A DNA stretch of 64,000 bases from a virus, in IMG/VR virus record IMGVR_UViG_3300042557_000893, positions 1 to 64,000 of that record; one strand, given 5' to 3'. The notes under the pieces are model-generated. The model searched no databases. It worked only from the letters and a program-made list of their open reading frames with translations, and was not told the origin of the DNA. Both the position numbers and the translations under genes were made by a program. How positions within the stretch are numbered: position 1 is the first letter of the stretch; the number at the start of each line of letters is the position of its first letter. Positions 20,601 to 58,299 of the stretch are shown here, in pieces.

Positions 20601-23600
20601 GTCTTTCATCTACACGGTTATACTTTAGCAGTGCCAAAAACCTTCTGATTTCTTTGTTGACTCCTTCAAGTTTGTTGTACTGATTTAGTCCACTGTCAAA
20701 ATCTGCAGACTCAGTTTCCTGGTCGTTAGAACCAGTTTCATCATCTTCGTTATACACAGGAGGATTTTCATCTGTGAGTAGCTCTTCTAATTTTTCTCCT
20801 GTAAGCGTGTCTTCTTGTTCTGGTTTGCTTTCTATAAGCGTATTAATCTTTTCAAAGTTTGCTTTGACAAGTTTCATCAAGGTCTTTTTAGACTCTTGAC
20901 CATTAGTGTTGTCTACAAAGCTGTCTCCTGTACCGTCATTGCGCTTTACTAAATTAGGACGTACCAAATTATCATAGTCAGGATTACCTGTGTTGTTCAA
21001 GTCAGGCAGTACTTCATTCCGCATGCGTGCACCCAACATAAAACGATAGTTCTTCCAGGTATTGCCTAAAACTTCAAGAATCTGATCACGTTTATCAGGA
21101 TGATTTGCAGTAAGTCTATCAAGGTTGTACACTTTGGCCAAAATAAATTTAGCTATTCTGTCAAAGTTTTGCTCAAACGTCTGCTTGTTATTATATCTTT
21201 TGAGCATGTAGTAAGTCACCATATTGACCAACTCATTTTGCTGTTCTGCAGAATTAAGACTTCCAATTCTGTCTGTAATTCCTACACCGCCAGGCAAATT
21301 TTCAATTTCAACCAGACCTTCAATAATCTCATATGCTGCCTGACCATCATATATGTCAGAAGCCATTACAGAAGAACTTGCGTAGTAACCGCTGCTTACG
21401 CGTGAGTACATTCTGTCAATTTCATTGCTCTTACCTGTAAACATTTCAATCAAACGTTTGAGCAACTGCATCAGGTCACCAAGAATACCTTTAGGTTTCT
21501 TGTTGTCTGTCATATATTTTTGAAAACCATCTGCAAGAATTTCTTCTGCCTGAAGTTGTTTCATGCGCGTCTTGTCATAGACATAGTTACGCTTGCGTGC
21601 AAACTCTTTGAGTGACTCTTCTGTAAACTTAGAAGCATGGACTTTCATCCCAGATACCAAGTCTACAAGACCTGCGCGATATGCATCTGTCATCAAATAT
21701 CTAAACACACCGTGAAAGGCCTCATGGTAAACAGTACCTTTCCCTTTAATTTGATTGTTCAGATAGATCACACGGTCTTTGAACATCCCCAATACAGTTC
21801 CATCTAGGCTTGCAAGATCATTCAGTGTAGATAGATCAAACTCTGAAAGCTTAAACTGAGGGTATGTTTTCTTTAACCAAGCAACAGCGCTGAGACGTTC
21901 AGCATCTGTTTCTGTTTCTACATTGCCTGCCATCATGCTAAACAAAGGCATGCGTGGTATGTCAATAGTGCTAGGTGCTACAGGTTGTTGCGTAGGATTT
22001 TGTACATGAATTTGTACCGGTTTTTCTACTGTAACAGGTACTGGAGCAGGAGCAGGAATACTGCTTAGATTACTCACATTATTTTTAGGAGTAATAACAA
22101 AACGCCTCATGCCAGAATCAACATGCATGTAGTTGTTCAGGTTAGAACCAAAACGTGCACGTGCGTTAATACCATTTTTAGGAGTGTATTTTGGTGAAAA
22201 AGAAATATTTGGTACAACAGTACCATCTTTTTCTTCACGAAAAAACAAAAACTCTGGTCTAAATACACCATTGTAAGTAAAATCCTCTTTAAGATTCTGC
22301 ATGAACCTGGGATCTTCACTGGTCTGTGTCTCAAGTTTGTTAAGCACCTGATTACGAATTTGCTGTGAAAATCTTTCTCTTGCTTCTTTAACAGCATTAG
22401 CAAGTTCTACAATCAACCCATCAACAGAACCTCTGCGGCTCATGACAGTAATTGTCCTGTAAAACTCGTAAAGATCTTCAGCTTTACTAAGATCAAACTT
22501 TGCAAGCTCAGGAAACTTTTCCTGAATTTGTTTTACAAGTTTTCCTTCACTAAGCGCTTTTGCAGTAGTAGTGATGATTTTTTCATCAAACAAAAAGTTG
22601 TAAAGCCTTTTGTTCTCCTCCATAAAACCATAACGATTATCTTTTCTGGCGGTCTTAATCCAAAATTGAAGTTGACCTTTTTTTGTAGTTGAAAAAGCAA
22701 CATAAAGTGGTTGATCATTTTTTGTTTTGCTACTAGCAGGCTTAAAAGAATACTCATAAAATTCAAAGTTTTTTATGTCTGTTTCTCTATTGGTACTGTT
22801 AGTCAATACAGTGCTAAGCTCAAAAATAAAGTTGGCAAACTCTTCTACTGGTGACATTGTACCCACATTTTCTGCAATATTGTAGGTAGGAATCGCACCA
22901 TCTCTAAACTTAATGACCAGGTTCATTTGATCCTTGTCTGTAGGTTTTAAAAGATTTTCTACAGTCCTAGGATTAAGACCAAGTATTTCTTTTGCATACC
23001 GTTCCATACTCAATAGAATGGGTTCAGCACCTGACTCTGGTATATACTCTATTTTTTCATCTTTATCCAGCAAATCCACCATTTGAAAATCTGCTAACGT
23101 TTTGCGAATACGATTATACAAAAATGGTATCTGGCGTTCTTCTTTAACTCCAGTCTTTGTGTTAACAACCGTAAGCTGCTTGTATAGCGTAGGATCTGAC
23201 TCAAGTTTTTTACCAAGAGGTGTAAGAGTCTTAAAAGACCGTGTGGACTGCATTTCATACGCGGCAGCAAACTGCTCTGTAATATCTATAGAGGTTTCAC
23301 CACTGGTAAATTCTGACATCAAATCATCCTGCACAGACGCTACAAACTCTTGGTACTTCTCTGCGCTGTCTTTGATGTTTTCTAAATCCTGCTCTGTAAG
23401 TTCTACGTTTCCTTTGTTTGTTGCTTTGACACTAAGACGCTTTAACTCTGCAAGATGTCCTGGATTGCTAAAATCTACCCGCTCTGTAGTGTTGTCAGAA
23501 GATACAAAAGTGTAGTTGTTGCTGCTGTACAGGTAAAACTTTTTGTCTGTTCCTATAAAGCTTCCAACCAATACAAAGCTTTGCTCTGATGCTTTAGGGC

Positions 23601-31728: not shown

Positions 31729-34700
31729 TTAGTCAAGTTCCACCCAGGGCAAATACATCTCACCACCATATTCGCGTAATGGAACAGGTAATGTCAGTCC
31801 TTGTGCAGACATTTGATTGAATTGTTGACGAGGAGTAATTCCCATGACTTGTCTTTGCTGAGCTGACATCATTTGATTTACAGAGTTAGTAGCATAGCGC
31901 TTAGCTTCTTGATCTCCCATAGTTCCTCTAGCTTCTTGATAAATTTGGTTCCACTGGTCAACATTTGCTATAGGGTTCATAGCTACCTGGCGTGACATGT
32001 CTGCATACGCTGGTGAGTAAGTGTCAGGACCAAGAGCATCACGACTCTGACCAGAAAAATCTGCATTACCTGTGATAGGATCAATGTATACTTGAGGAAA
32101 CAATACTTGTTCCATTTGTTTTTTGCGAAACCAGTTAGTAGTGCCGTTGTTGAACGCTGCAATTTGACGCCACTTCTTTTGCTGTTCTGCATTATCCATC
32201 TGCTGATTCAACGTGGCCATGTCTTCTACATATTTCTGACGACCAGTTTCATTAGCAACAGCTTCCTGATTGTTGATCTGGGCATTAGTCATGTAAGCTT
32301 GGTTGACAATACCTACATTGCGGTTTTCTGTATCTGCAAGTACATTAGCTGCATTAGCAAAACCTTGACCTGATGCACCTAACATAGAAGCCAATGCTAC
32401 ATTACCATCAGTTGTGTTCATTGCTTGTTCTTGCAAACGAGCCATTTGCTCTTGATTAGCAGCAAGTTGACGTGTAGGATCAAGAACTGTGTAACCAGGT
32501 GTCTGTAATTCTACTCTTCCTTGAGTAGGTTCATAGCGGTTTACCCTATCAGTAAGTGTTCCTGTAAAGTTTACAATATCTTGTAACCACCATGGTCCTT
32601 GTTTGCGAGGTTGTGCAGGTGCGGCTTCTCCTACAGCAATGTTAACTGGTTTCTTAGGTTCTTCTTTAGGAGTTTCTTTATTAGCTTGCTCTACAGGTGC
32701 ATCAAAAAAACGCGGAACAGAATAGGTTACTTGACCAAACTTACTGTCACGTTTGTAAGGTGAGTTATTAGCACTACTTGCATCAGCAAAATAGGGAACC
32801 CCAAATTGCTGCATGCTTTTTTCATTAATCTTATCCTGAAACCAACCTGCAGCTTTGTCACCGGTTTCTTGACCAGCAATCAAATCTTTTTTGTACTGCT
32901 CAAAACCACCAGCATACTCTTTGTCTACCCAATCACCATGGCGATCTTTAAAATCCTGCCATTCTTTTTCAGAAAGATTACCACTATTACGTGCTGCAGC
33001 ATTACCAGAAGACATGTATATCCCTGTATTACCCATTCTAGGTTGATTACCAAAAGAACCAAAGTTTGTTTCAGTGTAACGCACATTGGGTGTTTTGGCA
33101 AGCAACTGATTTATGTTTTGAGAACCATATTGTGAAAACTGCGTGTCTGTTCTGGTACCAGACATAATAATCTTTCCATTGACATCTTTAATGTATTTCT
33201 GGTCACCTTTGTAAAAACGATAAAAAGTCTCACCGTCCTTTGTGTACTGACCCATTGCAATTTCTTGGTTAGGATCAATGCGTTGATTAGGTGTGTTCTG
33301 TACTTCCGGCTGATTTGCAGCAGTTGTAGTCGTACTACCTGTCTGTCCAGCATCTTGATATTGATTCAATACAAAACCTCCTGTTCTAAAAGAATTAAAT
33401 GCTTCATATGCAGCATCTGACACGCCAGCGGGCTTAGCAACTTTTGTTTTAGGTGCTGAAGATGCGGGGATTGCAGTATTTTTAGGTGCAGTAGCTTGAG
33501 TATTTGTGTTAGTTACTGCAGAAGCAGAAGTAGACTTGGGTTCTTCAATTTTAGTAGTTCCTCCAGGAACGTCAGCACCAGGCGCCTGATTTTGAGAACC
33601 AGAATTTGCAATACTTACAAAATCAAATGTATTGTTTTTTACAGATCTGCTAATAAAATCATTGCTTAAATTTTTAGCAGTACCTACACGTTTTCCATTT
33701 TTGTCAATTTCAAAAACTTTAACAGCAGGTGTGTAACTATTACCAGGACTTACTTCTGTAAATATTCCAGTAGTTGGACTTGACATGTATGTTCCTCGAG
33801 CAGAACTTACATTTGCTGCAAAAGGATCTTCAACTTCATAAAGCTTTCCGTCAGCATAAAACTTACTTCCTTTTGCAAAACGTTGACCGGCTATTGTTTC
33901 TTCATTTGAATCATAATAACTTTTGCCTTCTTGTGAACTTGTTACAAACGCACGATTTACACGACCTTCTTTATATCCCAAGTCAACAGGTTTACCTGAA
34001 TCAATTCTTTTTTTAAGGTCTTTTGAGTTAGTCTTGTAATATCTACCATCTTCTGATTTAAAAGTTACAATATCCCCTGTACCCCAAAAATCAGCATCTT
34101 CATGCTTTTGATAAGTAAAAGGCACATTGTTAATGTAAATAGTAGTTTGAGGAGTATACTTTAGATTAAACCCACCCTCTTGAAGTTTTTTTACACCACC
34201 ATACTTTGCATCTGACATCTCAGCTTCACCTTCTGGTTGCAGTCCTGCCATTACTGAATCAGCAATTGCAGGAACACCATCAGGAAAACCTTTCATAGAC
34301 TCTTGTACAAGAGCTAGCATACCCAGCTTTTCCATATTGTTAGCAAGCATCTGCGTAGCAGAACGCTTTGTAATTGCGTCAGCGTCAGGGTTTTTTAGAT
34401 CCTGGATATACTGGTTAATCTGATAACGCTTAGCAATTTCAGCAGGTGTGTATCCTCCTGCTTTACCACCCATTCCAAATACTTCTTTGAGAATCTCTTT
34501 ATCTTTAATCTTGAGTTTCTTAGTATCTGAAAAAATAAATGATCCTTCAGGAATGTTTACAGGCATCCCTCCGTTTGAATGACGTTTGCCTACAAAAGTC
34601 ATATGCTCAAGAAATCCATCGCGATTAACATCACCCACCACTGTTTCACCACCCTCTACCTCAATATTTGCTTCTTCTATGGGTACTGCACCCATAGTAT

Positions 34701-34815
34701 TTTTTACAGGAGCATTGGTATTACCCTCACCAATATAATGTACTTGCCTGTGTACCAATGAGTAATCTCTTTGGTCTCCAGTTTTAGGTGACTTTGTTAT
34801 CCTTATATTTTTCAT
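31729..34815 (-). CDS. Modular Gly-Gly-rich cargo-type protein (1028 aa)
   Basis: The N-terminal domain contains NIEVEGGETVVGDVN, then FVGKRHSNGGMPVNIPEGSF and FIFSDTKKLKIKDKEILKE, a conserved block I recognise from crAss-like phage proteins without knowing its function. The middle is low-complexity (Thr/Ala/Pro-rich, with runs such as TKVAKPAGVSDAAYEAF). The C-terminal part is helical, Gln/Asn-rich and ends REYGGEMYLPWVELD. Gly-Gly pairs recur at apparent module edges (AKYGGVKK, LQEGGFN, FRTGGFV, REYGGEMY), as in the next two upstream genes. A conserved intergenic box lies 35-58 bases before its ATG, so it may start a transcript that runs on to the polymerase gene. Confidence 0.7.
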   Translation of the reverse strand: MKNIRITKSPKTGDQRDYSLVHRQVHYIGEGNTNAPVKNTMGAVPIEEANIEVEGGETVVGDVNRDGFLEHMTFVGKRHSNGGMPVNIPEGSFIFSDTKKLKIKDKEILKEVFGMGGKAGGYTPAEIAKRYQINQYIQDLKNPDADAITKRSATQMLANNMEKLGMLALVQESMKGFPDGVPAIADSVMAGLQPEGEAEMSDAKYGGVKKLQEGGFNLKYTPQTTIYINNVPFTYQKHEDADFWGTGDIVTFKSEDGRYYKTNSKDLKKRIDSGKPVDLGYKEGRVNRAFVTSSQEGKSYYDSNEETIAGQRFAKGSKFYADGKLYEVEDPFAANVSSARGTYMSSPTTGIFTEVSPGNSYTPAVKVFEIDKNGKRVGTAKNLSNDFISRSVKNNTFDFVSIANSGSQNQAPGADVPGGTTKIEEPKSTSASAVTNTNTQATAPKNTAIPASSAPKTKVAKPAGVSDAAYEAFNSFRTGGFVLNQYQDAGQTGSTTTTAANQPEVQNTPNQRIDPNQEIAMGQYTKDGETFYRFYKGDQKYIKDVNGKIIMSGTRTDTQFSQYGSQNINQLLAKTPNVRYTETNFGSFGNQPRMGNTGIYMSSGNAAARNSGNLSEKEWQDFKDRHGDWVDKEYAGGFEQYKKDLIAGQETGDKAAGWFQDKINEKSMQQFGVPYFADASSANNSPYKRDSKFGQVTYSVPRFFDAPVEQANKETPKEEPKKPVNIAVGEAAPAQPRKQGPWWLQDIVNFTGTLTDRVNRYEPTQGRVELQTPGYTVLDPTRQLAANQEQMARLQEQAMNTTDGNVALASMLGASGQGFANAANVLADTENRNVGIVNQAYMTNAQINNQEAVANETGRQKYVEDMATLNQQMDNAEQQKKWRQIAAFNNGTTNWFRKKQMEQVLFPQVYIDPITGNADFSGQSRDALGPDTYSPAYADMSRQVAMNPIANVDQWNQIYQEARGTMGDQEAKRYATNSVNQMMSAQQRQVMGITPRQQFNQMSAQGLTLPVPLREYGGEMYLPWVELD

Positions 34816-34849
34816 AATAAACTTCTGAAGTTTAAACTTGTGTGACCTT

Positions 34850-34873
34850 AAACCTCCTACATTTAGAATTTAC
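34850..34873 (-). promoter_or_regulatory. Conserved intergenic box (candidate late promoter) ahead of the cargo block
   Basis: The minus strand reads GTAAATTCTAAATGTAGGAG followed by GTTT. The same GTAAATTCT core occurs before the genes starting at 52730 and 47490, and a shortened form before 59591. It lies in a 106-base gap after the 748-aa gene. A TTAG lies 20 bases upstream of TAAATTCT, roughly where a Bacteroidota -33 TTTG would be. It could be a promoter or another late regulatory site. Confidence 0.45.
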
Positions 34874-34921
34874 GAATTTAATTCTGTTTTTCCTAACATG
34901 CAAGACTTAAAAATACAATGT

Positions 34922-37168
34922 TTAGTTTATGTATTCTATCTGACCACCATTGGCCAAAATAGCTTCAATTTCATCTTCTGAAAGATAGTATTCTCCACCT
35001 TCTTCATAAAATTTTGTTCCACCGTATTTTGCAGATGCCATACTTGTACCAAAATCTTGAATAGGTGTGTTAGCAATTAACGCAAAATTACTACCAGGAC
35101 CAGCATTCAATGTGTAGTTTCCAAAAGGATTAACAGCATTTGATGCGTTATACCGGTTGTCAGTATTTCCTGTTCTACGCAACATCTCTTCATATTCTTT
35201 AGCATAATCACGTTCACTAAGAACATCATTTAACATTCCCAAGCCCGCAATAGCATTATTAGCAGCAAGTTGTCCAAACGGATCACCATATGTTGTTTGT
35301 AGAACCTGTGGCATTTGCAAGTTCTGTGGCGTTTGCAAATAAGGATTTGCAGTTTTAATCTGTGGTTCAGGTACTGGAACCTGAACAACTTGACGCACCG
35401 GCATTTTAGATAATTGCGGCGTTACAGGAACATTTGCCAAAGGATTAGCGACTATTGACGGAGTTCTCTGAAGTTGGTTAAACATGTTACGAGGCGCAAC
35501 TTGAGGTAGTATAGGTTGAAGAGCCGGTGCGGCAGGTCTAGATACTTCTGAAACTGACAACGGTGTCATAGGTGTTACAGAACTTGTTCTTGGTGATTGT
35601 CCTTCAGGAGTACTCATGTTTAAAGAACCTATAAAAGAATTTAAGTAGTTCTGATAACCTGCAATATCATTACGTCTAAATACAGGGTTTTCTGCAGCCC
35701 ATTCTTGAAATGTTTTAGCTTTTTGACCACCTGCTTGATATTTTACAGTTTGACTATAAGGATTATTGTTTACACCAAGTAGTTTACTGTAACCTAACCC
35801 TGCACCAGAAAGACCCGCAGCAGCTCCAGCAATGCCTTTAAGTGTGCCTAAAAATCCTCTATTGGGCAATGCCCACATCATGTTGCGAGGATCAGCCAAC
35901 GTATTTGCAGTCATAAGACTTTTGTTCAACGCATTTGGAGCAAGATTTGCAAGAGTATTCTCATAATTTGCAGTTATTGCACCACCCTCTGCCCAGGTCC
36001 CAAAACGCTTGTGCCAATACAATGGAGAAAATGGATCTTTTGCTTTTGAAGAATCTCTACCACCCATGCGATCCCAAAAACGCTCTTTGCGTTTAGGATT
36101 GCGATGTTGTGTAAAATCTTTCATTCCCTTCCAACCACCATGTACCACTTTGTACTGATCACCTTTCTTTGCAAGCACCATCCACTTTTTACCAGGACGC
36201 GTTGACTTTCGTTTAGCACCTACTCTTGTGAAACCCATAGTACGGTAACGCTGAGGAATACCACCGCCGTCTTTATACTGGGTCAAATCATAAATTTCAC
36301 CACCAAGTTCTCTAGCAAAGTTTTTAGCAAAGTTTGCTTTCTTTACCATAGCAGGTGAGTACTTTTCTTTATGACGCAAAATGTAGTCTGCAGCTTCCTG
36401 TACGCTCATACCCATTCTAGTAGCCTGTGCTTTGAAAGTGCCTTTTTTAGCAGGATTAATTTTGATAGAACCACCCTTACGCATTTTTTCTGCAGAATCT
36501 ATAGAATAAAGTTCTTCATCATCTTCTGCTATTTGCTCCTGCATCATTTGATCTTCTTGGTCTTCAAACTCCTGCATTTCATCATTGTTCATAGGAACAT
36601 CTTCTTCTTCCATATCTGTCTCTTCAAGACCTTCCATGGCTTCTTCTAAGATGTCTAGAGCATAGTCTTCTTCCACACCGTTTTCTATGAGCATGCCATA
36701 AATCTCGTTAGGATCATCGCCCTGCATAATCATCTTTGAAATCTCACCAATTGCAGCATTCAAGTCAGGTTGTTCCTGACCACTCTGATACATTTGGTCA
36801 TTTTCTCCACCCTCCTGGTAAAACATCTCCATTGGGTTTACACTGTATTCTGCAATAGGACCACCTTGAGACATCTGTCCACCGCATTCCATGCAACCAC
36901 CCATTTCTGCTTTGCGCCATCCACCACCACGCTCTTTGTACCACTTGGCAGCAAAACCATTCGCGTAGGCTGAAGGGTACACATCGTACTTTTGTTTTGC
37001 AGCAGCTTTTGCTCTGCTCCACAATTCTGGATTGGTGGGCACATTGCCACCATCCTTCATCATGTTTGCTTCAGGATATGCTGCAAAGAATGACGCTTCA
37101 GTAGGATACTTTTCGTAAAACTCTTTTTCAGAATTTACACCAGCTATTTTTAGAAATTGTGTTTTCAT
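34922..37168 (-). CDS. Modular Gly-Gly-rich structural/cargo protein with giant-virus-like modules (748 aa)
   Basis: Several short modules are visible. Residues 61-86 read YDVYPSAYANGFAAKWYKER then GGGW, a motif found in many phage and giant-virus proteins. A GGCMECGGQ knuckle follows. Residues 165-225 are very acidic. Residues 235-285 contain INPAKKGTFKAQATRMGMS and KYSPAMVKKANFAKN, a widespread phage module. Residues 328-392 (VVHGGWKGMKDFTQHRNPKR ... SPLYWHKRFGTW) match the layout of a family typical of large DNA viruses (DUF5754-type, named from memory). The C-terminus is Pro/Gln-rich and ends with YGGTKFYEEGGEYYLSEDE. About fifteen Gly-Gly pairs separate these pieces. Its role in the virion is inferred. 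Confidence 0.7.
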   Translation of the reverse strand: MKTQFLKIAGVNSEKEFYEKYPTEASFFAAYPEANMMKDGGNVPTNPELWSRAKAAAKQKYDVYPSAYANGFAAKWYKERGGGWRKAEMGGCMECGGQMSQGGPIAEYSVNPMEMFYQEGGENDQMYQSGQEQPDLNAAIGEISKMIMQGDDPNEIYGMLIENGVEEDYALDILEEAMEGLEETDMEEEDVPMNNDEMQEFEDQEDQMMQEQIAEDDEELYSIDSAEKMRKGGSIKINPAKKGTFKAQATRMGMSVQEAADYILRHKEKYSPAMVKKANFAKNFARELGGEIYDLTQYKDGGGIPQRYRTMGFTRVGAKRKSTRPGKKWMVLAKKGDQYKVVHGGWKGMKDFTQHRNPKRKERFWDRMGGRDSSKAKDPFSPLYWHKRFGTWAEGGAITANYENTLANLAPNALNKSLMTANTLADPRNMMWALPNRGFLGTLKGIAGAAAGLSGAGLGYSKLLGVNNNPYSQTVKYQAGGQKAKTFQEWAAENPVFRRNDIAGYQNYLNSFIGSLNMSTPEGQSPRTSSVTPMTPLSVSEVSRPAAPALQPILPQVAPRNMFNQLQRTPSIVANPLANVPVTPQLSKMPVRQVVQVPVPEPQIKTANPYLQTPQNLQMPQVLQTTYGDPFGQLAANNAIAGLGMLNDVLSERDYAKEYEEMLRRTGNTDNRYNASNAVNPFGNYTLNAGPGSNFALIANTPIQDFGTSMASAKYGGTKFYEEGGEYYLSEDEIEAILANGGQIEYIN

Positions 37169-37169
37169 C

Positions 37170-40094
37170 TTAGTCGTTATAGTTGTCTAGCCAGTTTGTC
37201 TGACCACCTGTTTGACGTTTATTAGTAGCTTCTTTAAAATTAAGATAGCTTGCATTTTGTTTTACACGATCGCCATAATTTCCACGTCTATTCCATTTAC
37301 TTGGCAAGTGTGACCAAATATCGCGTTTTTGATTATCTGTTAACTGCTGATTATATCTTACACCTAACAATGCAACAGTTCCTATTGCTGCTTTTTCCGG
37401 ATCCATAAAATCCATGTTTGATGTAATACCTAAAGACTTTAGAACCTGTTTTTCATCTTCATTCAAATAGTTCCATCGTATTTGTGTCAAACCAACACTT
37501 CTAGACTCTTCGTTTGCACCATAAGTAGTAGCTTTTGACTTGTAGTCTGGCGAACTTGAGTTTTTAGAATCTATAAATTTAGCACTAGCTCTTGCAATAT
37601 TTCCAACAGCACTGTGAGTATCTCCAAAATTAGATTCTGTACCATAAATGCCAAATGCCATTTGCGCAAGTTCATTATATACATCTGAAGGAATTTTTGC
37701 ATTTTTCATAATGCTTTGTTTGTTTTTTACTAAAGCATTGTAAAAAGGTTTTGTTGTTTGCTGATATTCTTTTTCATCATTTAAATCATTCCAAGAAAAT
37801 ACTTTTTCTTTAAATTTCTTTTCATCAAAAACAGCTTTTATAGGACTATATGAAAGTGTATTAACACTTTGATTTGCTCCTTGCCCTTTTTGTACTTTTC
37901 CTGCAGCATCAACGTAACTATTGTATTTGGCGCGATTTTGAGCAGATACCTTAAGAACAGGTTTTCCATCTACAATCTGAAAACGATTTCCTTCATCTTC
38001 AGGTAAAACATAAACAGGTGTCTCAATGTCTACATGCTTTTGTAAATCTTTTAAATCAAAACATTTTCCATTAATGCAACCATAGCTCATTCTGTTATCT
38101 TCCACATTATCATTGTCAAATCTTGACCTTCTTCCTGTAGGTGTTCCGTGAATAGTAGTTGAAACCTCTATGCCACTGTCGTTTTTCAAATTAAAAGACG
38201 GAAGGCCATAATATGCCTTACTTGCGGGATCAATGTTTGAGATAGTGTATGCACCAGCTCCTGTTGATTTGTTGCCAGCACTCCAATCAGCTTTACCATT
38301 AACTACTTTTGTTACAGTTTGAGCATCTCCAGGATTTGCACCTACACCCACTTCATAGGTTTTCACAACCTTATCTCCTTTATAGACTTTCATTTGTGCG
38401 TTTTTCTTGTCTACAACAAGATATGTTTGTTCAGGTTTGTCGCTATAAAATCCTGTTATTAGTTGCTCATCAGGTAAATTGTTAAGCATGTCAAGATTTT
38501 TCTTTTTTTCACTCCAATCAACATATTCAGTACTACCTGTTTGCGCATTGTTTACAGATGAACCTTGAGGAATGACAAGTTTTTGGTCAATGCCTATAAT
38601 GTTTGGATTCTTTATGTTGTTGGCCTGAACAATTTTGTTGACTGTAGTTTTGTTTTCAGCGGCAATTTTGCTCAAAGTATCACCTTTTTTTACAGTATAA
38701 GTGGCGCCACCTTCATCATAATTATTTAACCAGTTCTTTGCTTCATTAAGCGTAGGAAGATCAATTTTTGTAAAAGGACTATCTTGCATCTCCATATACT
38801 TACGGAGAGTTTGTAAGTTTGACTTTACAACAGGTGCTAATGCACTTTTTGCAAGACCTGCTGAAAAACCTCCTACTACAGATTCTACTGCGGGAACATA
38901 GTCTACGTTGCCGGCAGCAGGTGGACCAAAAAGTTGGTCAACCTTCTGTCTGTTTTCCTTTGTGTTCTCGTACTTGTCAAGCCACTCTCCACCATTCTGC
39001 TTACGCTTATGCTGATAAGAGATTCTTTCACTTGAAGTTTTAGAACGCTTAAACTTTTCTTTTTCTGCACTGCTTAGTTCAGACGTTGTTTTGGGTGTGT
39101 CTTCTGAAATGCGTTTTGAAGGTCTGCATGCAGGATAACCCGCGCGCTTTTCACCTTCTTGTCTTCCACACTCTTTACCTGTTTTGACATCTACCCATTT
39201 TTCAGCAAACCATCTATCTAAGCCACCATGCTTACCACCACTTTGTTTTTTAACTAACTTTGTTTTAGCTAACTCAAGTATTTGATTGTAGTCACCACCT
39301 GCATTTTCCCAATTGTCTTCAACAAATTTTGTAAAAGTGTTGTTGTCTACGCCATAAGTTTTTGCAGCGTCATAAAGTCCTGGCAAGTTAAAACTACGTG
39401 CATACCATTTTGAGTCAGGTTTTTCACCACTTGACATAATTTGTTTGCCTACCTGAGTAGCAATAGACTCACCTGTTCCAAAATTTGCACCTTTAACCAG
39501 TCTGACAAAAGGTATCAGTCTATCTTCTAATGCATTAATACTATATTTTGTAGGATTTTCTTGAAGTGCATTTATACCAGCATCTCCAATCCATCCCAAA
39601 GGAACTTTTGCAAACTCACTTAGTGCTGTCCAAGGTCTTCCTTGATTCAGCGCTTTGGCACCCATCATAACACTTCCGTATGGTATTTGATCAATAACTG
39701 TCTCTGTGGAAACATTTTTAAAAAAAGGAAATATGTCAGTAGGATTTTCTGCTTTTTGTTTTGCAATACGTTTTTGAGAAACAATCCTAGTGTTGTCTAC
39801 TATTGGCGCAGATTGTGACAAAGCTCTTTGTCTAAGATCTTCCATAGTAAACTGGCCACCACGTTGCATCATAGGTGTTTCTACAACATAATCGCCTGGA
39901 AAAAAATACTCTCCCCCAGGCATCATAAACATTTCATTACCCAAGTTATCAACACCTTTCACAGGAAAGTCAACATCCTGCATGGTTATTCTACCAGAAG
40001 GAATAACATTTAGTGGCCTGTTAACATCAGGACTATTGCGCTTATACCCTTGAGTGGATATAAACTTCATAAGTACATCCTTGCTATTTTTCAT
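37170..40094 (-). CDS. LysM + L,D-transpeptidase + lytic transglycosylase fusion (974 aa)
   Basis: An N-terminal modular part contains [10 protein letters not shown] and CRPSKR segments at about residues 286-370. A LysM domain follows at about 462-507 ([20 protein letters not shown]). Next comes a YkuD-type L,D-transpeptidase with IHGTPTGRR (His649) and [13 protein letters not shown] (Ser670, Cys673); the usual Arg after the SxGC[IV] motif is Asn here. At the end lies a lysozyme/transglycosylase-like domain with catalytic-type Glu820 in YGTESNFGD and [10 protein letters not shown] chose ATG 40094, which overlaps the upstream TGA; a GTG one codon earlier is an alternative. LysM binds peptidoglycan and the two enzymes act on it. 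In this context it is probably a virion protein used at entry rather than a lysin. Confidence 0.85.
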
Positions 40095-43000
40095 CACCTT
40101 GAGCTGTTGATGTGCTTGCTATTTGTGAGTTTTAATACCATCTTTTTGTCACCACTGACGTTTTTGCGCAGGATGATATTGTTGCCATAGTGACGAAACT
40201 TCTTACGTTCAAGTGGTGACTTAAAGTAATCAATGTAGTCAGGGTTAATAATCTTCTGAACACCAGCACATTCTGTATTCCACATTGGTTCACGCGCAGT
40301 TGTAAATTCACCGCGATCTTTTGTGACATCCCAAAACTGATTAAACCTATACTTGTTTTCTTCTTTTGAAAATAAAATCTCTATACCGCTTGTAGAAACT
40401 TGTGGATAGTTGACCAATTCTAAAGGAGCATTCTTGCCTTTAATTCTTAATTTAAGAAGTCCTGATATTTGCTCAGAGTTATACAATACAGCCCTGTCAA
40501 AATTTTCGTCAAGAATATGATGAAAATCTTTTCCGTCATTGTAAAACTTGTAAACATCCAAGGTGTATTCTACACTTCTAAGTGTGGTAACGGCATTTGG
40601 AGTTATCACAGGATATTCAATTTCCCATGCATAGTTTGTACCATAGTAGTTACAATAACTATCCCACCGGTCATTGTGCCTCCAAATAGCATTTTCTTTT
40701 ATTGAAAGAAAGTGTCTGAAAGAAGGCATCAGCAATGTTGGTTTCCAATCATGAAAACTTATCCATTGTTTGTTTTTAGGATCATAACTTATTGTCCAAT
40801 GACAAGGTTTAAAAACAGCCGGATTGTCAAAACTGCAAAAAGTCTTTGTAGTAACAGGGTTGTTAGGTGAGCCTGATATTGTAACGTAATAGGGAACTCC
40901 TGATGGATCATCAAAAAGAAGATCGTTTCTCAATGGTGCATAGTCACGCTTAGTGAAATACACAATCTCATACTGTGAATCATAAATTGCCTGTACGCCA
41001 ATTCCAACAACTGGATTGTCATAATATGGATACTCAGGATATACTTTTAAAAACTTGCTTGGAAGATTTTCATTAAACCAAAATTTCATACCATTGCGTG
41101 AAATCTCAGTAATTCCTCCAGCATACTGCATAATCTTACCAGACTGCTGTGAAACAAAAAATAAACCGTGAGGTGTATTGACTGCTGCTCTAGATGATAT
41201 GCTACTTGCATAACCAATAGTGTCATCTGCATTGACAAGAGCTTGCATGTTTCCTTGAAACAGACCTCCATCACCAATAGTCAGTTTGACACCACCGGTT
41301 GTCTGAAGCTGATCTACACCTACAAACATTACAGGTTCAGCATCTTCAAAAAGAATCATAGCGCCTGTAGCATTAAGATTCTTAATTGTGCTTATCTTTC
41401 CTGAGAAGTCTTTGTAGTTAAGCGCAAGATAATTTCTCCAATTATCTCGTCTAAGTCCAGACTGTTGTTGGAGGGAGTATATTCCTCTATTAGGGTAATA
41501 TTCAAACTGTGTGGTGTATAATCTAGGGTCGTAGTCGCGGGGGAGTATAGAAGCCCAGGATGCAAAGTTGTTGAAAAGTTTTGATGCACTGAGAGATAAG
41601 TCATACTTAAAAAAGATTGGTTTTGTAATAAGATCAGATCTGAACATTGTGCTCAAATCATTAAAGGAGTTTCCATAAACATCGTAGAACTTTTCATAAG
41701 ATTCTTGACCATAGTCGCGATACGCCATGTTCAATTCACTTTCTGTAAAGAAATCTCTTACGCCATTGTGAAACAAATACGCATAACTATTTCTTACTGT
41801 CAAAACCCCTGTTATAGAACTTGGACGATCTAAGCGATGAAAATCACTTGGAGTATTAAGGTCAATTATTGGTGACGTAAATACACCATTTGGAAAAATG
41901 CTTATGTTAAAGTCCTGTGCATCATACTTTTCAAAATTAACCCAATAACGTGGTGCAGGACCATTAACATAGTTGCGATAATCATACTCAGTCCTGTTTG
42001 GCATGTCATACATCCAGGTGTTAAAGAACATGTAAGGATTCTTTTCTGTGTAACGATTTATATACACATCTCCACCAAAAATTGGACCCGATGTAAATCT
42101 TTGCTCTGTTTCACTAGAAGTTAAAAACACACACGATCCCGTAGGAAGTTGAACAACTGAGCTTAACTGACCATACTGATTTTGAAAGTCAACCTTTATA
42201 GCACCATAATATGCAACAGTAGTTGTAGTAATTTCATTTTTTAAAGGGTCACTATAAGTGACACCACCATCTTTGATTCTGTGTTTTGTATTGTCTTGCC
42301 CGGTTACAGGATCCGACACAGTTGAAGACAGTTTTAACGCCACATACTTGTTGCGATTAAGATTATTAATCCTGTGTGTTGCGTCAAAGTCATGTAAACC
42401 TGACCCTATGTATTTAGCAGATGATGGTATAATTTGACGTCTAATAGACTTCTGCAATCCTCCTGGCACAGAACTATTACTCACATTAGAAAAGGTAGAG
42501 TAAAATCCATGGGAATTATACTGAAGCATGTATTGACGTTCTTTAGAAATATTTCTTAAAACTTCCAATACCTGATCAATACCTTGACCAAAATAATAAA
42601 GACTACTTGTTGCTAAAACAGCAACACCAGCTGCATTAACACCAATGCTAACAGGATTTTGAAATGCTCCTGCAATAATTGCAGGTAATACTGTAGCACT
42701 TCCAGACTCTGTTGAAGATGCGGTAGTTACACCTATTCCACCAAGTTCACCTGAATAAGTTGTTTTGCCAAGAGCATTTATCAGTGCAATACCCGCTCCA
42801 ACAACTGCTGCAATAGCAAAAGCACCATCTGAAAGCAAAACATGTTTTGGGTGCTTGTCAGGGAATTCATAGCGACCTGTTACTGTACCTCTCTCTTCTG
42901 TGTAAAGTTTGATATGATTTCCACCTAAGTAAGGTTTCACAAAGTTTGTTTCAACAGAGTGAAAAGAAAAAATATCTCTCTTATAGTTAGAAAGTTTTGA

Positions 43001-44749
43001 AGCTGACTCAATAGTGCCAGGATTAGCGGTACCGCTATCCAAAACAGAATAGTCGTCTGTCAAAAAGTTATCTGGACGCAAATCATTGTAAGGATAATTC
43101 TGAATGAGACCTTTTCTTGAATTGTTACCGGCAAGATTATACTCCAGCATGTTGTTGAACAAACCTTTTGCAACAATGGTGCGGTTGCCCTCACGCGAAC
43201 CTCTCAGTATCTCATAACCAATAATGTCTGGTATTGGTTGATTATTTTCATTTACAGGATGAGCAATATTGGAAAATTCAACACCGAGAATAATAATTTT
43301 TGTACCTCCTTGGTTGTGAATGTGAATAGTTTCATTAGAAGGCATTTTGTGATGCCTAATGGGTTTACCACACAATGTGTCCCAAACAGGTTCTTTATCA
43401 TCAGGATAACGTTCTGTAGACTCCCAGTATGACATATCACCTTTGGCAATAATGACGCCTCCATCAGGTGTAGTACCAGTTGCGTTGTACTTGGTAGAAG
43501 TATCATACACCTGCCAAGCTTTATTTTGAGAAGATGTAAGCAAGTCTGGACCAGAAACAGTAGTGGTATCTACTGAATTGGAAGCACGTCCTGGAATATG
43601 AAAAGATGCAGAACGCGCACCAGTTCTGTATATCCAACGTATAAAAAATGGGTACACTTCATCACGCATGTAACCAACTGTGTTTCCACCACCCCAATAG
43701 TAGTCAGCAGGATACTCAGCAGCTACCCATGAAGCTCTAATTTGATTTGCTAAAGGCTGATAGTTAAAATATGGTTGTGTGGTGACACCGGTTCTAATAA
43801 GGTAATCATTTACCTCAAACATTTTTTCACTCTTTTCATATACCACAGATTTAAGTGGTATCTGAGCAATGTCAATTGTAGGAAGACTTTGCAAAAATAA
43901 ATCAAGTGTAACTTTGCTTTGTCGTATAGAGTAGTATCCAATCTTTTTAGCAATAGTCTGTTGATTAATAACAGCTATTACTACAAGTTCGTACTCATCA
44001 AAATTTTGATCAAGATTTGTAACTGAAATATCAATAGAACCACCAATGCCTGAGTGATCCCAAATAGCTTGTGGATTACTAGGAATAGAATAGTCTGTAA
44101 GACGTACTCCATTTTCAGAATAAGCTACACATGCAATGTAACTACCATTGTTTAGCTGACCTGCACCCTGTGCTTTACTAACCTTCACACAAGGTTGTGT
44201 AACCAAAGGATGAAGTCTTAACGCGTCACAATCTAACTCTTCTGAATAGAGTGGCTCATAACAATTAGGATCAGAATTTGCATCTCCTATTACTTTATAT
44301 GGCACCCTGTCAAGATTCAGAACACGATCAGGGTTTAAATTGTCTGCAAAATATACAGAATCAGTGCCGTCATAGTTGCCTTTGACTACTGCAGATATTA
44401 GGTGTGTTTTTTTAAAACCCAAACATGGGTCGTTCACTACAAGAGTGTAAGTACAGTTGCTCTCATCAAAGATGCCTATTTCTGAAGCAGTGTCATTACC
44501 AGATAAAATTACCCACCGCGTCTGAGAAATATGCGCAAAGCCAAGGATTGTGTAAGGAACTGTAACGCAAATCTGGTTAGAAGGTTCATTTCCAATAGAA
44601 CCCGACTCTCCATAATGAGAATTGTTAATAGCATTTACAGCATTAAGCCAAACTCCTTCTGACATATAAATGTCAGTATAGTCTTTGACCATGCCTTTGT
44701 GAAAGCTATTGGTCTCAGTTACACTGCTTTTGCTAAAATTTTCGCTCAT
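40094..44749 (-). CDS. Tail muzzle/stabilisation-type protein (1551 aa)
   Basis: The N-terminus [19 protein letters not shown] followed by [15 protein letters not shown] is a signature I associate with the large tail-tip protein of crAss-like phages (called muzzle in phicrAss001, earlier 'phage stabilisation protein', P22 gp10-like). The long strand-rich body with many aromatic blade-like repeats suggests a propeller. Residues of about 636-730 are unusual: Gly/Ala-rich and hydrophobic ([19 protein letters not shown], then [12 protein letters not shown] and [15 protein letters not shown]), which could be membrane-active. Its start overlaps the stop of the zincin gene (ATGA). It should close the tail and rearrange on ejection. 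Identification is by family resemblance. Confidence 0.8.
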
Positions 44750-45120
44750 TGTTCTTTGATGTTGTAGTTCTTAGATTTCAACACCTTGTACACCTCTTCT
44801 GTAAGATATCCTATAAGCCATGCTGTAGATTCTTCATCTTTTATTTCAATGTCAGATGTCATCTTAACAGCAAGATGAAACACTTCGTGGGCAATAAGAT
44901 TGTGAGAAAGTTGTTCTTCAACAAGGACTATGTAATACTCATGTCCTTTGGAAGTAAACAACTCAAAAACAACACCATCTGCGTCCATGACATCTATCAT
45001 GCCGCTGCACTTCTTATCAAGTTCAATCTGCATGTCTTCCATGTTTTTTACTACACATAGCATTGCATGCCTGCTATAAATTGAAACAGGTATCTTGCGT
45101 TTAAATATCTTACTAGCCAT
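44746..45120 (-). CDS. Small HExxH zincin metallopeptidase-like protein (124 aa)
   Basis: The 124-aa protein carries HNLIAHEVFHLAVK, with His78, Glu79 and His82 forming the HExxH zinc motif. DEESTAWLIGYLTEEVY follows, in which Glu96 or Glu97 could be the third ligand, as in ImmA- or SprT-like minimal zincins. The N-terminal half forms an antiparallel sheet (VVFELFTSKGHEYYIVL). No signal peptide is visible. It is coupled by an ATGA overlap to the muzzle gene and lies next to tail genes. Maturation of virion proteins is a reasonable but untested role. The giant polymerase protein has a second HExxH site. Confidence 0.75.
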   Translation of the reverse strand: MASKIFKRKIPVSIYSRHAMLCVVKNMEDMQIELDKKCSGMIDVMDADGVVFELFTSKGHEYYIVLVEEQLSHNLIAHEVFHLAVKMTSDIEIKDEESTAWLIGYLTEEVYKVLKSKNYNIKEQ

Positions 45121-56655: not shown

Positions 56656-58299
56656 TTAGAACGAACCGCCAGTGATGGGGTTCCTCATCACAATCTTAAG
56701 AACCTTGGTAGGGTCTTTCACCCAGATGGAAGGCATAGTCTGGGTCATGAATACGCGGTATCCATTAAAGTTTCCAGAAGAAGCGAACCCTTGAGTACGA
56801 CCCATGTAGTCCATGGTACCGTTTTGATAGAACCATTTGAGTTCACTATCCCACTTCAACTTCAACAAGAAGATGTTGTCGTTAGTGTTGTCAGTGATGT
56901 CAAATACAATAAAGTTGTAAGAAGACAATGGAAAACCATCAATGATAGGGTTTTCAATGTCATTGGTGTGTACGTTGTCAAACGCTGGGTTCAACACAAA
57001 CTTCACATTGGCCAAGAAAGGAATGGTGTAGCTAGTGAAAGCAAAACCAAAGTTCAAGTCCATCGCGTTGCTTCCGCTGATAGCGTTCAAACCAGACTTA
57101 TCAATGTTGGCTACCAGACCGGTACCTACAGTGTTGAAAGCTTCTTTCTTGATAGCTTCATTGACCATCTTCATACCAGCCATACCAGTTTGAACAATGA
57201 TCTGACGCTGAGGATCTGGACCTTTGAACTCAACCTTACCATTGTAGAAGTTGAAGATTTCAGAACGGAACAGCTCTAGGTTGAAAGAACTCTTGTTGTA
57301 AATACGCTTGAAAGAGTTGTCAAGCTGTGACCAAAGACCTACAGACAGGCGGATATCATCTGGACCATCCTGCTTGATACGTCCACCTTGTCCCCACATG
57401 AGGTAGGTTTCAATGTCATTAGCAATTTTGGTCAAGTGAGCAGCTTCCATCTTGGTGACAAAAGAACGAGTCAAAGTTCCAGAGTCATAAGCCTTCTTGA
57501 TGTATTCTTTACCCATCTTAGACACCATTGCGTCAATGTTGTTCAAAGAAGGATCTTTAGCAATGTTGGAATCAAAAGAACGCCAGATTTCAGTAACAGG
57601 TACTGTACCATCAGCATTCATACCGCCTTTCATCATCAACTCAGCACGGCTAGAAACAGAGTAATGAACGTGAGCTTCTGCGCCACCTACAAAGTTGTAG
57701 AACTCGCGGAAGCCAGCACTCAGTTCTCCGATGTCAGAGAAACGCTCTCCGTATTCTCCACGGGCAGAACCCTTGCGGAAGAACTTGGTACCAGGCTTAA
57801 GGTAGACTTTGCTCAAAGTCTTTTGGTTGTCGTTGTTCACCAACTGAACAGTGTATACGAAACCGTCACCAGAAGGAAGAATATCCTCAGCGGTAATGTA
57901 AAGTTCAGCGCCTTTGTATTTGTCGTAGGTGATGATGTCACCATGACCGAAGCTGCGCTTGTTCAATTTGATCTTGAAGGTTGTACCATCTTGACCAAGA
58001 TTTGTCAAACTAGGCTCCACATCCTCTACAACGTAGGGAAGGTCCTGAACAATTGGGGTTTGCCACTTGTATTCACCGCGAGGGTTGTCTACAGTGATGG
58101 TGTTCTTGCCACCGAAAGATGCCATCTGGTAAAGAGGCATTTCTACCTTTTGGGTCATAGCCCAAAGATCAACAGGACCCAAGTCCATGGGTTCTGCGCT
58201 CTTCAGCATATTTACCAAGTGGTAGCTGTCCACGTGCGAACTAACCTTGTAGCTAGTGTCGCGCAGGAAGAGACCGTTGTTTAAAACTGGTGTGCTCAT
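56656..58299 (-). CDS. Major capsid protein, HK97-fold type (547 aa)
   Basis: This 547-aa protein resembles crAss-like major capsid proteins in length and phrasing, for example LFLRDTSYKVSSHVDSYHL, SFGGKNTITVDNPRGEYKW, GHGDIITYDKYKGAELYI and SRAELMMKGGMNADGTVPVT. It follows the scaffold-like gene, as expected. HK97-fold features cannot be proved from sequence by eye. It is the most abundant virion protein in this family. Codon use avoids TTA, CTA and TCA, leaving long antisense open frames. The gene ends before a hairpin-rich region and terminator, which fits high-level, separately controlled expression. Confidence 0.85.
   Translation of the reverse strand: MSTPVLNNGLFLRDTSYKVSSHVDSYHLVNMLKSAEPMDLGPVDLWAMTQKVEMPLYQMASFGGKNTITVDNPRGEYKWQTPIVQDLPYVVEDVEPSLTNLGQDGTTFKIKLNKRSFGHGDIITYDKYKGAELYITAEDILPSGDGFVYTVQLVNNDNQKTLSKVYLKPGTKFFRKGSARGEYGERFSDIGELSAGFREFYNFVGGAEAHVHYSVSSRAELMMKGGMNADGTVPVTEIWRSFDSNIAKDPSLNNIDAMVSKMGKEYIKKAYDSGTLTRSFVTKMEAAHLTKIANDIETYLMWGQGGRIKQDGPDDIRLSVGLWSQLDNSFKRIYNKSSFNLELFRSEIFNFYNGKVEFKGPDPQRQIIVQTGMAGMKMVNEAIKKEAFNTVGTGLVANIDKSGLNAISGSNAMDLNFGFAFTSYTIPFLANVKFVLNPAFDNVHTNDIENPIIDGFPLSSYNFIVFDITDNTNDNIFLLKLKWDSELKWFYQNGTMDYMGRTQGFASSGNFNGYRVFMTQTMPSIWVKDPTKVLKIVMRNPITGGSF

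What the first reader, a model, noticed from the sequence alone, without database searches (positions are those of the whole stretch)
31729..40094. Gly-Gly pairs delimit modules in three adjacent cargo-type proteins
The 974-, 748- and 1028-aa proteins contain many GG pairs, commonly preceded by a polar or charged residue and located where one module ends and the next begins: [37 protein letters not shown] (right before LysM) and [45 protein letters not shown] and KYGGTKFYEEGGEY; AKYGGVKK, LQEGGFN, FRTGGFV and REYGGEMY. The neighbouring 881- and 1444-aa proteins have very few. GG could be hinge points that allow threading through the portal, sorting tags, or cleavage sites. Two HExxH zincins are encoded nearby (124-aa protein and inside the polymerase polyprotein). 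A GG-directed processing or packaging system is a speculative but testable idea.
Basis: partly seen in the sequence, partly recalled or inferred. Interest (0 to 1): 0.72.

Follow-up and report, generated by a model that had tools for sequence, protein, structure and literature searches.

The report
Gly-Gly joints punctuate crassvirus cargo proteins
In a crAss-type phage, the proteins packed inside the virus particle are strings of small swappable modules joined at a conserved glycine-glycine motif, and the same punctuation occurs in the crAss phages of the human gut, which gives a testable handle on how these viruses store, thread and perhaps cut the proteins they inject.

Summary
The window is a freshwater-type crassvirus. 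In the cargo region (975+748 aa) GG pairs are twice as frequent as composition predicts (27 vs 12.8). The 1028-aa protein is not enriched. In relatives, modules are gained, lost, moved and fused with breaks at GG. In 121 independent proteins there are 1854 GG against 966 expected.

GG carries a linear motif: F/Y/M/W three residues upstream in 44-48% of non-redundant sites, against 13-14% background and 10% at muzzle GG. Only motif-type GG mark module borders (1.73x, versus 1.12x for other GG). DUF5754 inside a string has GG immediately before it in 64/64 cases; as a stand-alone protein, in 1/13. Gut crassviruses, including the proven virion cargo gp45 of crAss001, show the same pattern.

'GG processing' is not shown. 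In published cryo-EM the portal-bound gp45 chain (425-552) runs through three GGs, one at a module border. No GG-specific protease tracks the motif, and the 124-aa zincin is absent from most GG-string genomes searched. I favour uncleaved, specifically conserved joints between threadable modules (about 0.5) over cleavage during or after ejection (about 0.3). The motif is undescribed in the papers I could search.

The parts
37170..40097 (-). Cargo ORF, 975 aa: N-terminal module, DUF5872, LysM, YkuD, C-terminal region; 9 GG, 3 of motif type
34922..37168 (-). Cargo ORF, 748 aa, position-equivalent of crAss001 cargo protein C1; 16 GG runs, 9 of motif type
31729..34815 (-). 1028-aa protein; GG not enriched, motif weak (2 of 10); peripheral to the finding
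39861..40097 (-). N-terminal module of the 975-aa protein; kept in relatives whose next module differs, break at GG 80-81
39855..39860 (-). GG joint MMQR-GG (residues 80-81), a breakpoint in relatives
38994..39224 (-). DUF5872 module (C-terminal type), also a stand-alone phage protein elsewhere
38706..38711 (-). GG joint NYDE-GG directly before LysM; breakpoint at residue 462 in relatives
38553..38705 (-). LysM module
   Evidence: PF01476, E=4.9e-16
38007..38426 (-). YkuD L,D-transpeptidase domain
   Evidence: PF03734, E=2e-10
36920..37045 (-). DUF5872 module (N-terminal type; Pfam hit below cut-off), bounded by GG 40-41 and GGG 81-83
36305..36469 (-). 'SIKI' module (GTFKAQA...KKANFAKN), bounded by GG 232-233 and 289-290; found in many crassviruses and in crAss001 gp45
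35987..36262 (-). DUF5754 module, bounded by GGG 301-303 and GG 395-396; also a stand-alone protein that starts at the GG position
34925..34999 (-). C-terminal mini-module GG-EYYLSEDEIEAILAN-GG-QIEYIN, conserved in relatives; similar units repeat in relatives Q and R
44746..45120 (-). 124-aa HExxH protein (phrog_1365); well-folded model, no solved relative; does not track GG strings
21373..22050 (-). HExxH domain inside the 4333-aa polymerase-type protein, homologous to crAss001 virion protein gp47
   Evidence: E=2.9e-9
40094..44749 (-). Muzzle-type virion protein, context and negative control (GGs of its family lack the motif)

Best explanation
The 975- and 748-aa proteins are internal cargo (ejection) proteins of a crassvirus built as a string of small modules. 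A conserved linear motif, about [M/Y/F/W]-x-x-G-G-x-[hydrophobic], marks the joints between modules. The joints are uncleaved, flexible boundaries in the virion. They let modules, mostly 20-100 residues long, fold, pack and thread one after another through the portal and narrow tail. They also let modules be added, lost or exchanged without damaging neighbours. Shown: the motif, its place at joints, its conservation, its breadth in crassviruses, and protein-level rather than DNA-level constraint. Inferred: that the window proteins are in the virion, that the joints are hinges, and that threading is their purpose. Not explained by a pure hinge: why the residue at -3 is so constrained, which suggests some partner also reads the motif.
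For: Homology ends fall within 5 aa of GG in 93/204 cases vs 16% expected; non-redundant 69/144 vs 24.6; gut crassviruses 116/336 vs 56.1; independent set 651/2378 vs 443 +/- 19.5 by circular shift, carried by motif-type GG (1.73x) and not by other GG (1.12x). GG is kept as GG in 79% of aligned cases, against 38% for dipeptides and about 50% for most flanking residues. Six relatives carry 975+748 as one fused ORF with modules dropped. The motif at -3: 51/107 (p=2e-18) in this clade, 35/151 in gut phages, 3/30 at muzzle GG, 12.9% at single G. In the 121-kb genome the motif is concentrated in the 748-aa protein (9 of 16 vs 2.3 expected) and the 975-aa protein (3 of 9 vs 1.0). DUF5754 embedded vs stand-alone: GG upstream 64/64 vs 1/13. 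crAss001 gp45, the proven cargo, has 20 GG runs, and the two ordered segments in the published structure (214-245, 425-552) have GG near their borders, chain order starting at residue 425, beside GG 427. In the low-confidence model of the 748-aa protein, GGs lie in loops or at ends of elements. Codons at GG are not unusually conserved.
Against: A simple hinge does not need a fixed residue at -3, or a consensus that shifts by lineage (M/Y-Q/K-E in freshwater phages, F-A-x in gut phages). GG pairs 5-9 residues apart are over-represented (spacing table), which a single hinge does not require. The AlphaFold model of the 748-aa protein is poor (pLDDT 40). The window proteins themselves have no virion proteomics. 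Sequence homology of the 748-aa protein to gp45 rests on one module (E=0.002) plus gene position, and the portal-binding domain PF25725 was not found in the window proteins.
Confidence: 0.5

Rival explanations
1. The motif is a protease site: the cargo string is a polyprotein cut at GG during assembly or, more likely, after ejection, releasing each module, as African swine fever virus does at Gly-Gly-X.
For: Motif at junctions, with the strongest constraint upstream of GG. Stand-alone DUF5754 proteins begin where the embedded module follows GG. Fused and split ORFs are interchangeable. GG lies within 20 aa of the C-terminus in 14/17 cargo proteins vs 4.9 expected, and in 14/21 gut proteins vs 5.9. 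An HExxH domain is shared by virion protein gp47 and the window polymerase protein. Polyvalent proteins are predicted to be processed by zincins (PMC5512222). The four gp45 peptide regions named in the paper's text do not cross a GG.
Against: crAss001 gp45 is modelled as a continuous chain through GG 427, 434 and 447 in the virion, and 427 is a module border. No C39 or S78 protease was found in 12 genomes; C48 was also not found but its control was silent. ThiF/JAB and the aspartyl protease occur only in crAss001 and DAC15 of the 12. The 124-aa zincin is missing from most. Tandem GGs 5-9 aa apart would release tiny peptides.
Confidence: 0.3
2. GG is only a neutral flexible linker that travels with modules because new modules are captured together with their linker; there is no selection on the motif itself.
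For: Module borders in multidomain proteins are often glycine-rich (general knowledge), and shared history could carry flanks along with modules.
Against: The -3 residue is enriched across 470 non-redundant contexts in an independent set (44% vs 14%). GG outlasts its own flanks (79% vs about 50%). Single-G and muzzle-GG controls are flat. The consensus differs between lineages but is shared by unrelated modules within each lineage.
Confidence: 0.12
3. GG-encoding DNA (GGNGGN) is the recombination point, so GG marks where DNA is exchanged rather than a protein function.
For: Breaks fall at GG, and GGT is somewhat favoured for the first glycine (66% vs 52% for single G).
Against: Synonymous conservation at shared GG is 0.495 vs 0.436 for single G and 0.456 for other fourfold codons, so the DNA is barely constrained. 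The conserved amino acid at -3 has no DNA reason.
Confidence: 0.03
4. The GGs are intrinsic to the folds of the individual domains (turns, helix ends).
For: True for some: GGs inside DUF5754 and at the end of the DUF5872 N-type module; GG before LDRWF is present in 41/65 stand-alone DUF5872 proteins.
Against: GG upstream of DUF5754 is absent in 12/13 stand-alone proteins; downstream of DUF5872 it is absent in 65/65. The SIKI module in two 410-kb phages lacking a detectable crass capsid has no GG upstream.
Confidence: 0.05

Closest known systems
Crassvirus cargo protein C1 (crAss001 gp45; Pfam PF25725 crAss_CARG1)
   Same: Same place after the muzzle gene; GG-rich; shares the 'SIKI' module; homology breaks at GG.
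   Different: The PF25725 portal-bound domain was not detected in the window proteins. gp45 is one ORF with a predicted transmembrane segment. The freshwater cargo is longer, split or fused variably, and carries LysM, YkuD, DUF5872 and DUF5754 modules. The GG motif is not mentioned in the papers read.
Polyvalent proteins of phages and conjugative elements (Iyer, Burroughs and Aravind 2017, PMC5512222)
   Same: Long multidomain proteins with several unrelated activities, thought to be delivered with DNA; HExxH domains in some of the relatives' strings.
   Different: The words 'glycine', 'linker' and 'crass' do not occur in that paper's main text; modules here are mostly 20-100 aa and punctuated by a fixed motif; the window's 975 and 748 proteins lack HExxH.
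African swine fever virus pp220/pp62 Gly-Gly-X polyproteins cut by pS273R (PMC10308890)
   Same: Glycine pairs at the junctions of a virion polyprotein.
   Different: There cleavage and protease are known. Here neither is, and the one solved homologue argues against cutting in the virion. The constraint at -3 is not part of the Gly-Gly-X description.
T7/P22 ejection proteins
   Same: Internal virion proteins that leave before or with DNA; the 975-aa protein has cell-wall-acting domains.
   Different: No sequence relationship was tested; a GG motif is not part of their description as far as I know.

Membership tests
Crassvirus (order Crassvirales) | Crass-type major capsid protein | tested here: met
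   PF23898 at 56656-58299, E=7.7e-33
Crassvirus (order Crassvirales) | Muzzle protein followed by cargo and large polymerase-type genes | tested here: met
   Muzzle-like 1551 aa; homology of the 4333-aa protein to gp47 and gp50
Crassvirus cargo protein C1 | PF25725 portal-bound domain | tested here: not met
   No hit in 1028, 748 or 975 aa at E<=0.01; hit in gp45 424-555
Crassvirus cargo protein C1 | Gene position after muzzle and shared module | tested here: met
   Order; SIKI module blastp E=0.002, hhalign E=9.5e-4 with low probability, 22%
Crassvirus cargo protein C1 | Presence in virion | not testable with these tools
   Shown for gp45 only (PMC10172136)
Polyvalent protein | Two or more unrelated functional domains in one chain | tested here: met
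   LysM, YkuD and DUF5872 in 975 aa; DUF5754 and a sub-cut-off DUF5872 in 748 aa; SET in relatives B and H
Polyvalent protein | Zincin metallopeptidase in the same chain (common, not universal) | tested here: not met
   No HExxH in 975 or 748 aa; present in relatives B, C, H, K, Q, R
Polyvalent protein | Delivered into the host with DNA | not testable with these tools
   Inferred from crAss001
Gly-Gly-X processed polyprotein (ASFV type) | GG at module junctions | tested here: met
Gly-Gly-X processed polyprotein (ASFV type) | Cognate C48-type protease encoded | tested here: inconclusive
   No match in 12 genomes, but the family rang in no control genome either
Gly-Gly-X processed polyprotein (ASFV type) | Cleavage after the second glycine | not testable with these tools
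   Published gp45 model is continuous through three GGs

The most novel reading that the evidence does not exclude
The motif is read by a dedicated factor (a protease acting during or after ejection, or a virion or host receptor), so that crassvirus cargo is a punctuated, module-swapping delivery system whose pieces are individually handled; as far as I know it would be the first such linear-motif code for ejected phage proteins.
Probability: 0.35. Interest if true: 0.85.

Novelty: new variant of a known kind. Interest (0 to 1): 0.62.

Why it matters
Crassviruses are the most abundant viruses of the human gut, and how they store and push megadaltons of protein through a narrow tail is open. 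A conserved motif that marks module joints gives a ruler for where these proteins bend, unfold or are cut. It lets modules be defined and catalogued from sequence alone, and it can be tested in the cultured phage crAss001.

Tried and rejected
1) GG count alone as proof: rejected, since only the 748-aa protein is individually significant. 2) The 1028-aa protein as an equal member: not enriched, motif not significant. 3) The 124-aa zincin as GG protease: present in 5 of 6 close relatives, not found in K, crAss001, DAC15, p-crAssphage, crAss002, cr127 and phi4:1; model confident (pLDDT 91) but no solved relative. 4) A ubiquitin-like E1/JAB pair in crAss001 (gp76 ThiF, gp77 JAB-like), tempting because JAB enzymes can cut after GG (own knowledge): only in crAss001 and DAC15 among 12 genomes. 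5) C48, C39 and S78 proteases: none found, C48 control silent. 6) Pfam scan of 58 other ORFs of the genome: no peptidase among the 25 families shown, 15 further families not displayed. 7) DNA-level recombination site: codons not constrained. 8) Profile search of the 748 and 1028 families against solved structures: no gp45 match. 9) AlphaFold of the 748-aa protein: too poor for domain claims. 10) Literature searches for GG or glycine in crassvirus cargo found nothing in the held library; most subscription papers are not covered.
Full report
WHAT THE WINDOW IS. The window is a 64-kb part of a crassvirus: the capsid protein at 56656-58299 matches Crass_capsid, and the 1551-aa protein at 40094-44749 matches virion structural families and the equivalent proteins of Cellulophaga and Flavobacterium phages. 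A 121-kb metagenomic contig carries the same genes at 100% identity. Transcription runs right to left: capsid, tail, 124-aa HExxH protein, muzzle, then 975, 748, 1028, 881, 1444, 4333 and 2012 aa. In crAss001 the cargo protein gp45 follows gp44.

THE COUNT. Residue shuffles show enrichment of GG only in the 748-aa protein (18 vs 6.7). The 975-aa protein (9 vs 6.2) and the 1028-aa protein (10 vs 8.0) are not individually significant. Pooled, 975+748 give 27 vs 12.8 (p=5e-4), and 13 of 14 related cargo regions are enriched. The 1028 family is not (124 vs 110.5), and the 881, 1444 and 4333 families are depleted.

MODULE SHUFFLING AT GG. In relatives the cargo region changes by whole modules. In six contigs (E, G, H, I, O, S) the 975 and 748 ORFs are a single ORF with modules missing. 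In C and D the first 82 residues and residues 277-462 of the 975-aa protein are kept and the rest is replaced. The 55-aa module NDREMVEGIADILT... sits between GGs in C, J, E and O and is absent in A; EMIKRADGSYSKRGLW... lies in the 748-like ORF of F but in the 975-like part of G. Ends of local homology fall within 5 aa of GG in 93/204 cases (16% expected), and in 69/144 vs 24.6 after removing redundancy; among 264 dipeptides GG carries by far the most ends, and the few with higher ratios (ME, FY, IK, EM, MK) are rarer, some of them parts of the motif flanks. GG stays GG in 79% of aligned cases, against 38% for any dipeptide and about 50% for most neighbouring residues; single glycines are kept in 71%.

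A LINEAR MOTIF. In 107 non-redundant contexts of this clade the residue three before GG is F, Y, M or W in 48% (background 13%, p=2e-18), Q is 4.4-fold enriched at -2, E/D/Y are favoured at -1 and a hydrophobic residue at +2. Muzzle GGs (3/30) and single glycines (12.9%) show nothing. In the window the motif is met by 9 of 16 GG runs in the 748-aa protein and 3 of 9 in the 975-aa protein, and rarely elsewhere in the genome.

INDEPENDENT SETS. Loci with any of three modules gave 121 new proteins: 1854 GG vs 966 expected, 88 of 121 individually significant, and 44% F/Y/M/W at -3 in 470 non-redundant contexts. Among 83 non-redundant proteins 651 of 2378 homology ends lie within 5 aa of GG (443 +/- 19.5 by circular shift); motif GGs account for it (1.73x) and other GGs do not (1.12x). 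DUF5754 has GG directly upstream in 64/64 embedded copies but in 1/13 stand-alone proteins, most of which begin M(A/P)IP(D/E) or similar where the embedded module follows GG (Fisher p=3.5e-13). The SIKI module in two 410-kb phages without a detectable crass capsid lacks the upstream GG. For DUF5872 the upstream GG is partly intrinsic (41/65 stand-alone). These samples share ancestry, so p-values overstate independence.

GUT CRASSVIRUSES. crAss001 gp45, a virion cargo protein by mass spectrometry and cryo-EM (PMC10172136), has 20 GG runs and a SIKI-like module. Its homologues in other gut phages match in blocks such as 264-329, bounded by GG 263 and 332. Over 21 gut cargo proteins, 116 of 336 homology ends are near GG vs 56.1 expected; the preferred context is F-A-x-GG. 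Gp46-like proteins are mostly not enriched. One Cellulophaga phi4:1 virion protein (gp040) shows 14 vs 7.1 GG with contexts NFQAGG, SYQNGG, TFQIGG, KFQSGG. So the consensus shifts between lineages but is shared by unrelated modules within a lineage.

MECHANISM. Codons at GG are hardly more conserved than elsewhere, so the signal is in the protein. For cleavage speak the junction position, the upstream-biased constraint, C-terminal GGs (14/17 vs 4.9 expected; gut 14/21 vs 5.9), fused and split ORFs, the African swine fever virus precedent, and an HExxH domain shared by virion protein gp47 and the window's 4333-aa protein. Against cleavage in the virion speaks the published model of gp45 residues 425-552, which includes GG 427, 434 and 447; 427 is a module border. 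None of these three fits the strict -3 rule, so motif-type sites remain open. No protease distribution matches. The ordered segments of gp45 have GGs near their borders, and order begins at residue 425, beside a GG, which is what a hinge would look like. I therefore prefer uncleaved joints between threadable modules, at about 0.5, with processing around 0.3. The constrained -3 residue remains unexplained by a plain hinge.

STATUS. Multidomain delivered proteins are known (polyvalent proteins) and crassvirus cargo is known. The GG motif as their punctuation was not found in the open papers searched. I file it as a new variant of a known kind.

Noticed in passing
L008 and L031 cargo ORFs, residues about 56-101: SET (lysine methyltransferase-type) domain as an N-terminal module of the cargo string in two relatives (PF00856, E=3.5e-6 and 3.8e-7); an unusual candidate effector for a phage virion.
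   Followed up: partly
Cargo ORFs of L008, L030, L031, L018, L024, L025: Variable slots hold large domains with HExxH (AAHETGHY, TIHEGTHD, VHELGHA, DHEINHA, PHEVSHS); some inserts look like ADP-ribosyltransferases by eye only.
   Followed up: no
L018 and L037 cargo ORFs, near the N-terminus: Zinc-ribbon-like modules (CxxCGWSWK...CHKCG) bounded by GG.
   Followed up: no
crAss001 genome 81394-83792 (L058): ThiF (E1-like) gene next to a JAB-like metalloprotease gene, shared with DAC15 but not with ten other genomes searched; a possible ubiquitin-like system in some crassviruses.
   Followed up: partly
window 21373-22050: HExxH domain with YHEAFH core inside the 4333-aa polymerase-type protein, homologous to the C-terminal part of crAss001 virion protein gp47 (E=2.9e-9).
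   Followed up: partly
L310-L313 (rest of the 121-kb genome): A Tad2-like (Thoeris anti-defence) domain protein and an SPFH/Band 7 protein among the non-structural genes.
   Followed up: no
L024, L025 cargo ORFs: A unit of about 25 aa, roughly GGxIxLTxxEVxxYxxGGYxVEE, repeats several times, resembling the C-terminal mini-module of the window's 748-aa protein.
   Followed up: no
window 37203-37208, 38988-38993 and the F (L035) cargo ORF: A second short motif, GG-(x-x)-WL(D/E)xY, recurs after GG in the 975-aa C-terminus, at residue 369 and several times in relative F.
   Followed up: no
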